A stretch of DNA of 64,000 bases from Streptacidiphilus melanogenes (GTDB lineage Bacteria; Actinomycetota; Actinomycetes; Streptomycetales; Streptomycetaceae), in NCBI RefSeq assembly GCF_000787835.1, contig NZ_BBPP01000009.1, positions 151,005 through 215,004 on the forward strand, given 5' to 3'. Position numbers and translations under genes: made by a program. Positions within the stretch are counted from its first letter, which is position 1. Each line of letters begins with the position of its first letter. The notes under the pieces were generated by a model, which worked only from the letters and a program-made list of their open reading frames with translations, had not been told where the DNA came from and ran no database searches. This document shows positions 34,917-42,374 of the stretch, one piece after another.

Positions 34917-35041
34917 GCGGAAGGGAGCCGGCGCAGGTGGGCTCGCAGGGACGGCCGGTTGGTCGTCGAGGTCTCCCGTGAAAGCATTCCTCGAACCCGT
35001 CTGAGCACGCCAGGCGCACCTCCACTCGCAGAAGGACGTTC

Positions 35042-35794
35042 ATGAGCACTGTTGACCACCGGGCGGCCGTAGCCGCCGAGACCGCCCGGTTCGTCGGCGT
35101 CGTGGAGCGGGCCGACCTGTCCGCTCCCGTCCCGACCTGCCCCGGGTGGACGCTGACCGACCTGGTCCGGCACGCCGGCAGCGTCCAGCGCTGGTTCGCC
35201 GTGCTGCTGCGCGGACGCATCCAGCAGCCGCCGACCAGTCGCGACGTCGAGCTCAAACTGCCCGAGGAGGCAGCCGGTTACCCGCAGTGGCTGGCCGACA
35301 GCCTGGTCGAGGCCACCGGCGCCATCGACGCAGGCGACCTCGACGATCCGATGTGGGCCTGGGGCGTCGACCAGCACGCCCGCTTCTGGGTGCGGCGGAT
35401 GCTGTTCGAGACCCTCGTGCACCGCAGCGACGCCGAACTCGCCCTGGGCCTGCGCCCGGAGATCGAGCCCACGCTGGCGCTGGACGGCGTGGACGAGTTC
35501 CTGGTCAACCTGCCGAACGCCGTCATGTTCGCCCCGGGGACCGCCGAACTGCGGGCCGAGAACCGCACCATCCGGTTCGGCTGCCCCGAGGGCCACCGGG
35601 TGGTCCGGCTCCGTCCGGACGGCTTCGGGGTGGAGCCGGACAGCGACGGCCCCGTCGACGCCTCCGTCGACGCGGCCACCGCGGCCGACCTGCTGCTGCT
35701 GCTCTACGGCCGCTACGACCGCACCGCCGACGCCTTCGAGCGCTCCGGCGACCAGGGCCTACTCGACCACTGGTTCGCCCACTCGCAGTTCTGA
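35042..35794 (+). CDS. Maleylpyruvate isomerase-family mycothiol-dependent enzyme
   Basis: The 250-residue protein has the DinB-like MDMPI N-terminal fold: VPTCPGWTLTDLVRHAGSVQ, then WVRRMLFETLVHRSDAELAL with the family histidines, and a C-terminal MDMPI_C-like domain (ADLLLLLYGRYDRTADAF). Such proteins use mycothiol, the actinobacterial thiol, or are related proteins of unknown reaction. AAGGA precedes the ATG. It stands alone and ends at a hairpin shared with the convergent chitinase. Confidence 0.85.
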   Translation: MSTVDHRAAVAAETARFVGVVERADLSAPVPTCPGWTLTDLVRHAGSVQRWFAVLLRGRIQQPPTSRDVELKLPEEAAGYPQWLADSLVEATGAIDAGDLDDPMWAWGVDQHARFWVRRMLFETLVHRSDAELALGLRPEIEPTLALDGVDEFLVNLPNAVMFAPGTAELRAENRTIRFGCPEGHRVVRLRPDGFGVEPDSDGPVDASVDAATAADLLLLLYGRYDRTADAFERSGDQGLLDHWFAHSQF

Positions 35795-35822
35795 CCGGCC
35801 GCCCCCGGGCGCAGGACACCGC

Positions 35823-35851
35823 GGACGGCGGCCCCGGGAGGGCCGCCGTCC
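35823..35851. terminator. Bidirectional hairpin terminator
   Basis: The stem GGACGGCGGCC with GGCCGCCGTCC (11 bp, perfect) and a 7-base loop lies between the convergent isomerase-family gene (ends 35794) and the GH19 chitinase gene (ends 35867). TTG follows on the plus strand. Confidence 0.8.
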
Positions 35852-35866
35852 TTGCCGTCCGTGTCG

Positions 35867-36970
35867 TCAGCAGGTGAGGTTGGAGCCTGCCGGGACGCCG
35901 AGGATGGAGGTGAAGGACACGTAGTCGTTGACGCGGTCCTGCATCTCGGCGGTGTTGGCGCCGTTGCACTCGACGCTGCCGTTGATGCTGCGGATGGTCT
36001 CGCCGAAGCCCGCGCCGTTGACCATGGCGTTGTGGGCCGTCATCGTGCCGGGGCCGGTCTGGGTGTTCCAGTACCACAGACCGGTCTTCCAGGAGGTCGC
36101 CGGATCGGACGCGACCAGACCGGGGTTGTCCAGCAGGTCGATGCCGAGGGCGTCACCGGCGGCCTTGTAGTTGAAGTTCCAGCTGAGCTGCATCGGACCG
36201 CGACCGTAGTAGGCGTAGGTGCCGGCAGGGCAGCCGTAGGGCTCACTCGCGCAGTAGTTCCCGGACTGGTCGACCTCGTTGATGTAGACGAGGCCGCCGG
36301 TCTCGTGGTCCACATTGGCCAGGAAGGCCGCGGCCTCCTGCTTCTGCACGGTGGCGCTGCCGGTGGTGGCGAAGCCGGGGTACGCGCTCAGCGCGGCCAC
36401 CAGGCCGCTGTAGGTGTAGAAGGAGTTCCGGTTCGGGAACATCTGGTCGAACTGGGCCTCGCTGACCACGAATCCGCCGGAGCCGCCGGTACCTCCCCCG
36501 GAACCGCCGGAGCCGCCGGTGCAGCTGTAGGGGGACCAGTACCAGGTGCTGATGGTGGGGTCGTATCCCGGGTTGTCATGGGTGGCGATGTAGTACTGGC
36601 CGTTGGGGGTGTACTGCACGATGGCACCGGTCGCGTAGGACTGCCCGGCCACCCAGGCCGGGTAGGTGCAGCCGCCGCCGGTGCTCCCGCCGCCGCCCGA
36701 GCCGCCGCAGGCGCCCTGGTCGGCCCAGACGTCGGCGACGCCGGGCGTCTCGCCCTGCGTCCACCACTTCGCCTGCCAGTTGTCGCCGTTGTAGGAGGCG
36801 GTCATCCCGCCGGTGTAGACCGCGCTGGAACTCCAGGGCGCTGCGCAGTCCGCCGCCATCGCGGGGCTTGCCGCGCCGAGGACGGTGAGCGTGCCGAGGA
36901 TGCCGACCAGGACGGCCAGCAGCGCCGCGACGCGCCTGCCACGATGGCGCGTTGAGGACATGGGTCGCAT
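35867..36970 (-). CDS. Secreted GH19 chitinase with two chitin-binding modules
   Basis: The 367-residue protein has a signal peptide (to about residue 38) and two tandem CBM5/12-type chitin-binding modules: residues about 40-85 (WSSSAVYTGGMTASYNGDNW) and 97-147 (YPAWVAGQSYATGAIVQYTP). Gly-rich linkers separate them from a C-terminal GH19 catalytic domain. The catalytic block HETGG (after FLANVDH) and YYGRGPMQLSWN are both present. It degrades chitin outside the cell, most often at N-acetylglucosamine linkages with inversion. The ATG at 36970 has GGAG 6 bases upstream. A DasR box lies just upstream at 37021. Confidence 0.94.
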   Translation of the reverse strand: MRPMSSTRHRGRRVAALLAVLVGILGTLTVLGAASPAMAADCAAPWSSSAVYTGGMTASYNGDNWQAKWWTQGETPGVADVWADQGACGGSGGGGSTGGGCTYPAWVAGQSYATGAIVQYTPNGQYYIATHDNPGYDPTISTWYWSPYSCTGGSGGSGGGTGGSGGFVVSEAQFDQMFPNRNSFYTYSGLVAALSAYPGFATTGSATVQKQEAAAFLANVDHETGGLVYINEVDQSGNYCASEPYGCPAGTYAYYGRGPMQLSWNFNYKAAGDALGIDLLDNPGLVASDPATSWKTGLWYWNTQTGPGTMTAHNAMVNGAGFGETIRSINGSVECNGANTAEMQDRVNDYVSFTSILGVPAGSNLTC

Positions 36971-37020
36971 GTGCCACTCCAGAGGTGGGGGTGAGTGGGG
37001 ACCCACAGCAGCAAAGCGTC

Positions 37021-37036
37021 ATTGGTCCAGACCAGT
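37021..37036 (-). promoter_or_regulatory. DasR-responsive element (dre) upstream of the GH19 chitinase
   Basis: ATTGGTCCAGACCAGT (minus strand ACTGGTCTGGACCAAT) matches the dre consensus with TGGTC and GACCA half-sites. It is 51 bases upstream of the GH19 start, and on the minus strand TTGACT, a -35-like hexamer, overlaps it. DasR represses chitin and N-acetylglucosamine genes and is released by glucosamine-6-phosphate. Confidence 0.8.
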
Positions 37037-37077
37037 CAAGAGCCGGGAGGCATTTTCTGGCAGAACATGACCAACAA

Positions 37078-38070
37078 TCAGTTCCCGACTCCGGCAGGCA
37101 GGTCGTCGAGCCAGTCGACGAGGATGCGGTTGACCTCGGCGGGGCGCTCCTGCTGGATCCAGTGACCGCAGTCGTCGAGGAGATGCGAGGAGACCAGCCC
37201 GGGCAGCGTGGCGGGGAAGGCGTCGATCGCGTCGGCCAGCCACACGGTGGAGGCGTCGAGCCGGCCGCCGACGAACAGCGACGGCTGCGTCACGGGCGCG
37301 CCGTCGTACGCGGCGAGGTCCTCCCAGTCGCGGTCCATGCTGCGGTACCGGTTCAACGCGCCGGTGAAGCCGGTCCGTTCGAACTCTCCCGCACAGACGT
37401 CGAGGTCGCCCTCGCCGAGCCAGGCCGGAAGCCGCCCGGCGGGGAACCGGTCGCGCAGGGTGCCGCCCCGGCCGACGAAGTGCGGGTCCGGAGCCTGCGG
37501 CCCGGGCATGGTGTCGCCGGACAGGGCCGCGTAGAAGCCCGCGAGCCAGCCGCGCACGTCGGGCTCGATCTCCCCCTCGGCCCGGCCCGGCTGCTGGAAG
37601 TAGGAGACGTAGAACTCCTCGTCGCCGCCCATCCGCGCGAAGACCTCGCTGGGCCGCGGTCCGCCACGAGGCGTGTAGGGGACGCTGAGCAGCCCGACCG
37701 CACGGAAGACGTCCGGTCGCAACAGAGCCGAGTCGGCCGCGATCGTCGCACCCCAGTCGTGGCCGACGACCACGGCGGTCTCCTCACCCAGGGCGTGCAC
37801 CACCTGGACGTTGTCCTCCACCAGGTCGACCATCCCGTACGCGGCAGGGTCGGCGGGCTTCGAGGAGCGGCCGTAGCCGCGGACATCCACCGCGACCGCG
37901 CGGTATCCCGCCGCGGCGAGCACCGGAAGCTGGTTGCGCCAGGAGTACCAGGACTCCGGGAACCCGTGCACGAGCAGCACGAGCGGCCCGCTTCCCTGCT
38001 CCACCAGGTGGATCCGCCCCGCCGGCGAGGGGACGAGGCGGTGGGTGACGCTCTTGGTGTGCGCGGGCAT
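37078..38070 (-). CDS. Epoxide hydrolase-like alpha/beta hydrolase
   Basis: The 330-residue protein has the epoxide-hydrolase marks: HGFPESWYSW (oxyanion hole), GRSSKP, the nucleophile elbow VVVGHDWGA with Asp as nucleophile, and the catalytic His in DDCGHWIQQE. The lid-domain tyrosines that position the epoxide are plausible (FYVSYFQQP). Expected reaction: opening of an epoxide to a diol, or hydrolysis of a haloalkane. There is no signal peptide. GGAGAG lies before the ATG at 38070. The gene stands alone. Confidence 0.9.
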   Translation of the reverse strand: MPAHTKSVTHRLVPSPAGRIHLVEQGSGPLVLLVHGFPESWYSWRNQLPVLAAAGYRAVAVDVRGYGRSSKPADPAAYGMVDLVEDNVQVVHALGEETAVVVGHDWGATIAADSALLRPDVFRAVGLLSVPYTPRGGPRPSEVFARMGGDEEFYVSYFQQPGRAEGEIEPDVRGWLAGFYAALSGDTMPGPQAPDPHFVGRGGTLRDRFPAGRLPAWLGEGDLDVCAGEFERTGFTGALNRYRSMDRDWEDLAAYDGAPVTQPSLFVGGRLDASTVWLADAIDAFPATLPGLVSSHLLDDCGHWIQQERPAEVNRILVDWLDDLPAGVGN

Positions 38071-38213
38071 GAGCTCTCCGAATCCGTGGGCGTGCGGGCG
38101 CCGCGACGACCGTCGACCGGCCCGCGGCTCGGCGCCCAGCATGACCTCGACACCGGCGCGGCAACGACTCCTGTTGCCGTTTCAGCAAACCACGCCCCTG
38201 CGGGGACCCCTCG

Positions 38214-38892
38214 TCAGCTCCCCGTCCGGCCGCCCAACTCCGCCCAGCTGTCGCTGTCCATGCGGTCGCGGGGGCCGACTCGGGCGAGTTCCGAACCGTC
38301 GCGTCCCACGGCCACGATGAGAGGCCGCCCCCCCTGTGTGGTCTCCGGACGGGGACCTCCAGACCACGACGAGCCTGCCGTGCGCGGGCACCTCGATCCG
38401 TCGGGCGCCGAGAAGCAGGTGATCCACTTCGGCCGCCACCTGGAGTTGCTGGGACCCGACCCACGGAACCGGCCCGGTGCGGCCACGATGACGATGCTGC
38501 AGGCGGTAGGCACAGCTCTGGCTGCCTGAACTCCCCAGAAGTTCGATCATGCCGATCTGCCCCGTCCGGCCCGCTGCCAGTCTCTCCCAGGGCTGGTGAT
38601 CGTTCGACACGCTGCCGCCGCCCATGTCCTGCCATGTCTCGCCGCAGCGCTCGAACAGCGTGGTGTACGTCTCCGCCTTCGCGGACCCGGGACGCCAGAC
38701 GAGCCAGACCACGCCGACCCCGGCATCCCGGTCGACATCGGCCGACATCAGGGCCAGCCACCGTCGAGGCAGCCAACCTGGCTGCGTTACCTTGCCGTTG
38801 ACCACCTGGCGGATCACCCTCGGCAGAATGATCCCCATCCAGCGGTCCATACGGCGCATCCGTCGCAGCTCCGTGCGAGTGAGCATGTCCAC
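38214..38892 (-). pseudogene. Hypothetical protein gene interrupted at a G7 homopolymer
   Basis: From a GTG at 38892 (or the ATG at 38886) one frame gives a protein-like sequence (MLTRTELRRMRRMDRWMG, PGWLPRRWLALMSADVDRDA, IEVPAHGRLVVVWRSPSGDH). At a run of seven G (C7 on the plus strand, 38328-38334) the sense moves: the original frame degenerates into His/Arg-rich sequence, while the next frame reads RPLIVAVGRDGSELARVGPR and ends RTGS. Removing one G would join them into a single protein of about 225 residues. The cause may be a real mutation, slippage or a sequencing error. The family is not recognised; an N-terminal helix and a basic face are visible. Confidence 0.6.
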
Positions 38893-38946
38893 ACGGTACC
38901 CAACGGGGAGGCCCGGATGTGGCCGGGCGGTAGCGTACTGCGGGTG

Positions 38947-39678
38947 ATGGTTGGGGAGTGCGAGCGCGTCCAGACCTCCTGGTTCCGGGCGCAGGCAGAG
39001 GTGCTCGGCGGCCGGTCGTGGGAGGACGGTGCGTTGAGCTGGACGGACGGTCCCGAGGGCCTGAACCTGATGTTCCCCGGCGAGCTCGACGCAGCGGCGG
39101 TGCGGCGCGGGGTCCAGCAGGCGCTGAGCCGCGGGCGGGCGTCCGTCGGGGCCTGGCTCAGTACTGACGTCGATCCGTCAGCACTGCGGGAGTGCGGTTT
39201 CGATCGCGGCTGGACGATCCGGTGGATGGCGGCGCCGCTGTCCGCGGTCGCAGCCGGCGGAGACGACGGGGACGGCCGCATCGAGCTCCAGGCCGACAGC
39301 CTCGACTACGACGGTGAACACGCCGACTACCGCGACCGGCTGACGATGACCCGGCAGGAGCCGCAGACGGCCTGGTATGCAGCCGCCTATACCGGTCCGG
39401 CATCGCCGGACGGGCCGCGGCGGTTCGCCGGGCGTGCGTGGTCGTACTACGACGGCGGCCCGCAGGGCACCGCTGGGGTGTTCGACATGGAGGTCTGGCC
39501 CCGGTTCCGCCGTCGGGGACTGGGAACCGGCCTGCTGCGGACCGTGTGTTCCGCCGCGCGGGACGCCGGCGCGTCGCAGGTCGTGCTGAACGCGACGGAC
39601 GAGGGCAGCCTGCTCTACCGCACGTGCGGGTTCACCACCATCGGCGAAGGCATCACCTGGTGGCTCCACCTGCGGTGA
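38947..39678 (+). CDS. GNAT family N-acetyltransferase
   Basis: The 243-residue protein ends in a GNAT domain. The acetyl-CoA-binding motif A reads WPRFRRRGLGTGLLRTVCSA, motif B is QVVLNATDEGSLLYRTCGF, and the substrate-side strand is GVFDMEVWP. The N-terminal half (residues 1-110) looks like a degenerate second GNAT-like domain (SVGAWLSTDVDPSALRECGF), as in double-GNAT proteins. It moves acetyl from acetyl-CoA to an unknown amine. The ATG at 38947 follows a GTG in another position; no strong ribosome site is seen. The gene is divergent from the broken gene to its left. Confidence 0.82.
   Translation: MVGECERVQTSWFRAQAEVLGGRSWEDGALSWTDGPEGLNLMFPGELDAAAVRRGVQQALSRGRASVGAWLSTDVDPSALRECGFDRGWTIRWMAAPLSAVAAGGDDGDGRIELQADSLDYDGEHADYRDRLTMTRQEPQTAWYAAAYTGPASPDGPRRFAGRAWSYYDGGPQGTAGVFDMEVWPRFRRRGLGTGLLRTVCSAARDAGASQVVLNATDEGSLLYRTCGFTTIGEGITWWLHLR

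Positions 39679-40211: not shown

Positions 40212-42374
<2,163 letters not shown>

What the first reader, a model, noticed from the sequence alone, without database searches (positions are those of the whole stretch)
38214..38892. Gene broken at a run of seven G, possible phase-variable switch or sequencing error
The two parts of a plausible protein are in different frames, joined exactly at a G7 run (38328-38334). A one-base loss would restore a single reading frame. Homopolymer slippage can act as an on/off switch, but homopolymers are also the commonest error site.
Basis: seen in the sequence. Interest (0 to 1): 0.5.

Follow-up and report, generated by a model that had tools for sequence, protein, structure and literature searches.

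The report
Inherited frameshift breaks an uncharacterised gene
A small gene of unknown function in a Streptomyces-type bacterium is split by a reading-frame break that a sister species also carries at the same place, so it is most likely an ordinary decaying gene and neither an on/off switch nor a sequencing mistake.

Summary
In detail: on the minus strand, 186 codons (38335-38892) and a conserved C-terminal stretch (38217-38327) lie in different frames with a G7 run (38328-38334) between them, the only G/C run of seven or more in the window. Relatives form an unnamed actinobacterial family of about 204-234 residues with no significant Pfam, NCBIfam, PHROG or PADLOC match; 31 of 38 places read it in one frame (labels corrected by hand). 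Six distinct close intact relatives have 39 bases between the Trp and Leu codons flanking the linker; the window has 40, and so does the sister-species copy (G007) from another assembly, although its run is G6. That argues against a sequencing error and a simple G-run switch. The G007 copy also lacks 78 internal codons and the promoter-like box. Best reading: a fixed frameshift, probably inherited from the common ancestor of the two species, leaving a pseudogene or truncated product. Selection tests are inconclusive: the N part still shows second-position constraint, so a retained truncated protein, or less likely a recoded one, is not excluded. Ordinary; low interest.

The parts
38893..38898 (-). 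TACCGT, a -10-like box (TANNNT) six bases before the ATG at 38886; suggests a leaderless transcript (inference)
   Evidence: TACCGT at this place in the window and in intact G496, G392, G164 and TSRI0281; TACCAT in Ag109, TAACCT in G120; the G007 copy lacks it
38335..38892 (-). N-terminal 186 codons of the family gene (GTG 38892 or, more likely, ATG 38886)
   Evidence: 74% identity to G496, 66% to G392, 63% to G164; no stops inside
38322..38361 (-). variable linker, 40 bases from the Trp codon to the base before the Leu codon; 39 in six of six distinct close intact relatives
38328..38334 (-). G7 run
   Evidence: only G/C run of seven or more in the window
38217..38327 (-). conserved C-terminal stretch (37 residues beginning RPLIVAVGRDGSEL) in the second frame; TGA at 38216-38214
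38182..38328 (-). tail of the first frame beyond the run; does not resemble the C-terminus of relatives

Best explanation
The locus is a fixed frameshift in a member of an uncharacterised, patchily distributed actinobacterial protein family. Shown: the break, its match to intact relatives, and the same frame offset in the same linker in a sister species. Inferred: the offset arose once, in the common ancestor of the two species, probably as a small insertion/deletion or slippage event in a G-rich, poorly conserved linker. The ribosome would now read the first 186 codons and then an unrelated tail, losing the last conserved segment. The product is probably non-functional and the gene is decaying in both species, further advanced in G007.
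For: Same 40-base spacing in window and G007 against 39 in six of six distinct close intact relatives. The G007 copy also lacks 78 internal codons (alignment) and the promoter-like box. Window and G007 group as sisters (SH-aLRT/UFBoot 94/82 on DNA, 91/77 on protein; RELL 0.83), on DNA branches of 0.125 and 0.131 against 0.034, 0.047 and 0.034 for G496, G392 and G164 (G120: 0.223). The neighbouring hydrolase also pairs G000 with G007 (89% identity; at most 82% in the other genomes). Private nonsynonymous:synonymous changes are 32:15 (window) and 19:7 (G007), near the simulated neutral 2.6:1, against 56:46 in five intact lineages. Broken copies are common: 7 of 38 places, the window included, plus one with two TAG. 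Two frame-broken copies in one genus, supported by homology, fit the hypothetical-pseudogene class of GeneTack (PMC3711429 Table 1, passages read).
Against: The excess of nonsynonymous change is not significant (Fisher P 0.15 and 0.12), and an intact lineage, G120, has 47:26. Between window and G007 the N part shows constraint: differences at codon positions 1, 2, 3 are 22, 7, 24 (binomial P 0.0008). The C part gives 7, 6, 8 between those two, but 6, 2, 11 (P 0.024) between window and intact G496, so the window's C part was under selection for part of its history; intact pairs have too few C differences to compare. Both frames are free of stops, though a neutral simulation gives about 45% chance of that after 40 changes. 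The window copy keeps its promoter-like box. The sister grouping is not secure: 4 of 7 alternatives survive the AU test, and long branches could attract. The G007 copy is not at the same spot, though near shared DNA. The linkers differ enough that two independent events are possible.
Confidence: 0.7

Rival explanations
1. Sequencing or assembly error at the homopolymer; the gene is really intact.
For: Homopolymers are error-prone (general knowledge) and this is the longest G/C run of the window; most places carry an intact copy (31 of 38); the promoter-like box is kept; the window's C part against G496 still shows second-position constraint (6, 2, 11; P 0.024).
Against: The sister species' separate assembly shows the same offset in the same linker with a G6 run. 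At positions invariant in six intact relatives the window has changed 4 of 23 in the C core and 12 of 88 in the N part (P 0.74), so its C-terminus is not better kept than the rest.
Confidence: 0.08
2. Phase-variable switch: slippage in the G run turns the C-terminus on and off.
For: G7 run at the junction; G6 in the linker of intact G496, G392 and Ag109.
Against: Seven G is short. G6 occurs in intact and in broken copies, so run length does not track frame. In 24 of 30 linker stretches found by pattern (32 places scanned) the longest G run is only 2-4. The window linker differs from relatives by more than run length. No function typical of phase variation is indicated by the family searches.
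Confidence: 0.05
3. Truncated but functional protein: the N part of 186 codons is kept under selection and the C-terminus was dispensable.
For: Second-position constraint in the N part between window and G007 (22, 7, 24) but not in the C part (7, 6, 8); promoter-like box kept in the window.
Against: The C-terminus is among the most conserved parts of the family: 7 of 15 invariant columns of a 14-sequence alignment lie from P188 on. The G007 copy lacks the central region too.
Confidence: 0.1
4. Programmed +1 frameshift or transcriptional slippage on the glycine codons joins the two frames.
For: Same offset in two species, both frames open up to the junction, GGG GGG codons at the junction in both; C part of the window still constrained against G496.
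Against: Apart from GGG GGG no shared slip motif; only two sequences; the other 31 one-frame places need no recoding; intact G496, G392 and Ag109 have the same GGG GGG in frame; the C part shows no second-position constraint between the two broken copies; the G007 copy lacks its centre and promoter box.
Confidence: 0.05

Closest known systems
Intact members of the same unnamed family (Streptomyces natalensis ATCC 27448, Streptomyces sp. Ag109_O5-1, Streptomyces sp. TSRI0281, Actinacidiphila oryziradicis, A. yanglinensis)
   Same: Same N part and C-terminal motif; a TANNNT box six bases before the ATG in all five (TACCGT in three, TACCAT and TAACCT in the others)
   Different: One reading frame, 39 bases in the linker instead of 40
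Hypothetical pseudogene clusters of GeneTack (PMC3711429; passages read)
   Same: Few frame-broken copies, at most two genera, break supported by homology to intact proteins
   Different: Only two copies here; the N part still shows constraint
Homopolymer phase-variable genes (poly-C/poly-G methyltransferases named in PMC3711429, passages)
   Same: Break next to a G run of seven, the minimum repeat length used in that paper
   Different: Run length does not track frame; linker otherwise diverged; no alternative state seen

Membership tests
Unnamed actinobacterial family of about 204-234 residues (this work) | Homology over the N part | tested here: met
   74% identity to G496, E 5.3e-87
Unnamed actinobacterial family of about 204-234 residues (this work) | C-terminal motif (RPLIVA..GRDG.ELSRIGP.DS.DS.TW) in the same frame as the N part | tested here: not met
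   Motif present but in another frame
Phase-variable homopolymer gene | Repeat of seven or more at the break | tested here: met
   G7 at 38328-38334
Phase-variable homopolymer gene | Run length follows frame among relatives | tested here: not met
   G6 in intact G496, G392, Ag109 and in broken G007
Phase-variable homopolymer gene | Mixed run lengths within a culture | not testable with these tools
   No reads available
Programmed frameshift gene | Five or more frame-broken homologues with a conserved frameshift site (PMC3711429 Table 1) | tested here: not met
   Two copies with the break in this linker; beyond GGG GGG, which intact copies share, no conserved site
Pseudogene by frameshift | Intact homologues elsewhere, this break in few related genomes | tested here: met
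   31 of 38 places in one frame; this break in 2 of 14 genomes of the genus, 3 of which have the family at all
Pseudogene by frameshift | Loss of selective constraint | tested here: inconclusive
   N:S ratios near neutral but not significantly different from intact lineages; second-position constraint in the N part

The most novel reading that the evidence does not exclude
The shared offset is a conserved +1 recoding site on GGG GGG codons (or RNA polymerase slippage on the G run) in two sister actinobacteria, yielding both a truncated and a full-length form of a protein made from a leaderless transcript.
Probability: 0.04. Interest if true: 0.6.

Novelty: new member of a known kind. Interest (0 to 1): 0.14.

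Why it matters
Mostly as a caution: a frame break at a homopolymer is readily called a switch or an error, but comparison with one sister genome points to an inherited break. It also brings out a small, unnamed, often-broken actinobacterial family with a promoter-like box directly before the start codon.

Tried and rejected
Function: the family searches gave no significant match for the window piece or the intact relatives tried. The best were Pfam E 0.016 for L002, below that model's cut-off; PADLOC E 0.047 for the window piece; PHROGs E 0.26 for L002. NCBIfam gave none for the window piece and two relatives, and Pfam none for the two window pieces. A profile search of PDB sequences gave one chance-level match (E 0.2). 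AlphaFold2 on six sequences gave mean pLDDT 39, too low for a fold search, so none was run.

Neighbourhood as a clue to function: no conserved partner was seen in the loci looked at. The GNAT gene next door is in 1 of 14 genus genomes, its own (E 1e-20 or better). The hydrolase neighbour is widespread (12 of 14 at E 1e-60). The sister copy sits next to other genes. Two of the five named loci were read for neighbours. Relatives on plasmids: 3 Streptomyces records at about 43%.

Selection tests were inconclusive because numbers are small. In one search I left G120 (47:26) out of the pooled intact lineages; its ratio is close to the window's, so the contrast is weaker with it. In one search the test of excess C-terminal change gave P 0.21 (window) and 0.09 (window plus G007), G120 included.

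Literature: two full-text searches (Streptomyces, phase variation, homopolymer: 12 of 16 papers listed; Streptomyces, programmed frameshift, slippery: 4 of 4 listed). By title and start of abstract, none of those listed is about this family or such a switch in Streptomyces. PMC3711429 and PMC5009743 were seen as passages only.

Counting note: one search labelled L001 (window) intact and L011 and L012 broken. I reversed these, because L001 needs two frames and L011 and L012 stop at their natural end. 'Intact' there means one frame without a stop from residue 60 or before to within 25 of the end. The three plasmid records, G724 and G803 (distant partial matches), and G829 and G832 are not among the 38.

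Full report
What was claimed and what is there. The claim is a protein split between two frames at a G7 run. Searches confirm it on the minus strand: the first frame runs from 38892 to a stop at 38184-38182, the second ends at 38216-38214, and the G7 lies at 38328-38334. It is the only G/C run of seven or more in the window, where a first-order Markov model gives about 31 (14 runs of six or more against about 100). Such runs are thus rare here, and the coincidence with a break is worth explaining.

The protein family. The N part (186 codons) has relatives in 5 of 61 genomes of the first survey, 3 of 14 of the genus, 10 of 35 of genus g6 and 15 of 392 of genus g9; the first two counts include the window's own genome. 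With intact relatives as query, 18 of 394 of the family, 12 of 296 relatives of G496 and 14 of 391 of the order match. Two genes of named Actinacidiphila records are found, over their first 660 bases, in loci of g6, and the S. natalensis copy equals that of G392 in g9 over the parts compared. I infer that g6 is Actinacidiphila, g9 Streptomyces, and the window's family Streptomycetaceae (taxonomy recalled); no call named the window's genus. The first scan of genome contigs, with the window piece, found nothing; the second, with a close alignment, found five one-frame copies. No significant Pfam, NCBIfam, PHROG or PADLOC match was found. The longest and shortest proteins read out are 234 and 204 residues.

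Intact against broken. Among 38 distinct places, 31 carry the N part and the C-terminal motif in one frame and 7 do not: window, G007, G215, G207, G120 contig 8, G117 and G488 (labels corrected as told in Tried and rejected). In G120 contig 8, G117 and G488 the frame changes near residues 70-90; G215 and G207 match over one part only. Only the window and G007 break in the linker before the C-terminal motif. One search adds a match without stops (G829) and one with two TAG (G832).

The shared offset. From the Trp codon of the W-x-S-P motif (W-K-S-Q in Ag109) to the Leu codon of RPLIV, six of six distinct close intact relatives (G496, G392/S. natalensis, G164/A. oryziradicis, G120/A. yanglinensis, TSRI0281, Ag109_O5-1) have 39 bases; the window and G007 both have 40. 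The G007 run is G6, as in intact G496, G392 and Ag109. Two assemblies of two species agree on the offset, which makes an error in either unlikely, and G-run length does not predict frame. The window linker also differs from relatives at several other positions, so the exact event cannot be told.

One event or two. Trees place window and G007 together (94/82 on DNA, 91/77 on protein; RELL 0.83), but of seven alternatives tested four survive the AU test (P 0.11-0.20) and three do not. The species pair is supported by the hydrolase neighbour: 89% in G007, at most 82% in the rest. The G007 copy is on another contig, which begins with the homologue of window 35030-35795 at 92%, about 1.2 kb before the gene copy, so part of the neighbourhood is shared but the order is changed. 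I judge a single ancestral event more likely than two, not proven.

Decay. The G007 copy lacks 78 central codons, in frame, and the TACCGT box that precedes the start in the window and in intact G496, G392, G164 and TSRI0281. Private changes are 32:15 nonsynonymous to synonymous in the window and 19:7 in G007, against about 2.6:1 in a neutral simulation, 56:46 in five intact lineages and 47:26 in a sixth, G120; neither broken copy differs significantly from the five. Against simple neutrality, second codon positions of the N part are constrained between window and G007 (22, 7, 24; P 0.0008). The C part gives 7, 6, 8 between those two, but 6, 2, 11 (P 0.024) between window and G496; intact pairs have too few C differences to compare. 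All-site divergence of the two parts taken together is 0.211, with dS 0.37 and dN 0.16, against dS 0.28 and dN 0.06 for the hydrolase. The pattern fits a gene selected for part of the time since the split, or an N part selected without its C-terminus.

Mechanism. Most likely the ribosome reads 186 codons plus a tail of about 50 unrelated residues, and the last conserved segment is lost. A low-confidence model (mean pLDDT 39) puts two strands in that segment, a hint only. The promoter-like box suggests that the gene may still be transcribed, probably without a leader (inference; the TANNNT box and leaderless habit of actinobacteria are recalled knowledge).

Comparison with known kinds. By the criteria of GeneTack (PMC3711429 Table 1, passages seen), programmed frameshift and phase variation need five or more frame-broken homologues, with a conserved site or a repeat respectively; pseudogene clusters are confined to at most two genera. 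Two copies in one genus fit the last. The review PMC5009743 (passages) mentions low-level frameshifting on a run of seven G in a viral gene, so leaky read-through cannot be excluded here.

Verdict. Observation confirmed; switch and error disfavoured but not tested on reads; most likely an ordinary inherited frameshift in an undescribed family. Interest 0.14.

Noticed in passing
window 1-64000: G/C homopolymers are scarce: 14 runs of six or more against about 100 expected from a first-order Markov model, one of seven or more against about 31. Codon structure alone may explain part of this.
   Followed up: partly
window 40215-42353 (-): A 713-residue protein that reads as an NAD-dependent DNA ligase (name recalled, no family search run) matches 5 of 14 genus genomes, its own included, at E 1e-100 or better, one of them at 50% identity; it may not be the housekeeping copy.
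   Followed up: no
window 38947-39678 (+): GNAT-type acetyltransferase (longer reading frame) beside and divergent from the broken gene, matched in 1 of 14 genus genomes (its own) at E 1e-20.
   Followed up: no
L077 10-2350 and window 35030-38887: In the sister species the homologue of window 35030-35795 lies near the broken family gene, with a lipoprotein-like gene between (kind recalled from its sequence); the order differs from the window, so this neighbourhood has been rearranged.
   Followed up: partly
upstream of the start in L007, L008, L011, L012, L013, L015, L024, L038, L042, L044, L051, L054, L057: Family members carry a TANNNT box, or TATCGC or TACCGA in place of it, six or seven bases before the ATG, consistent with leaderless transcription across the family.
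   Followed up: partly
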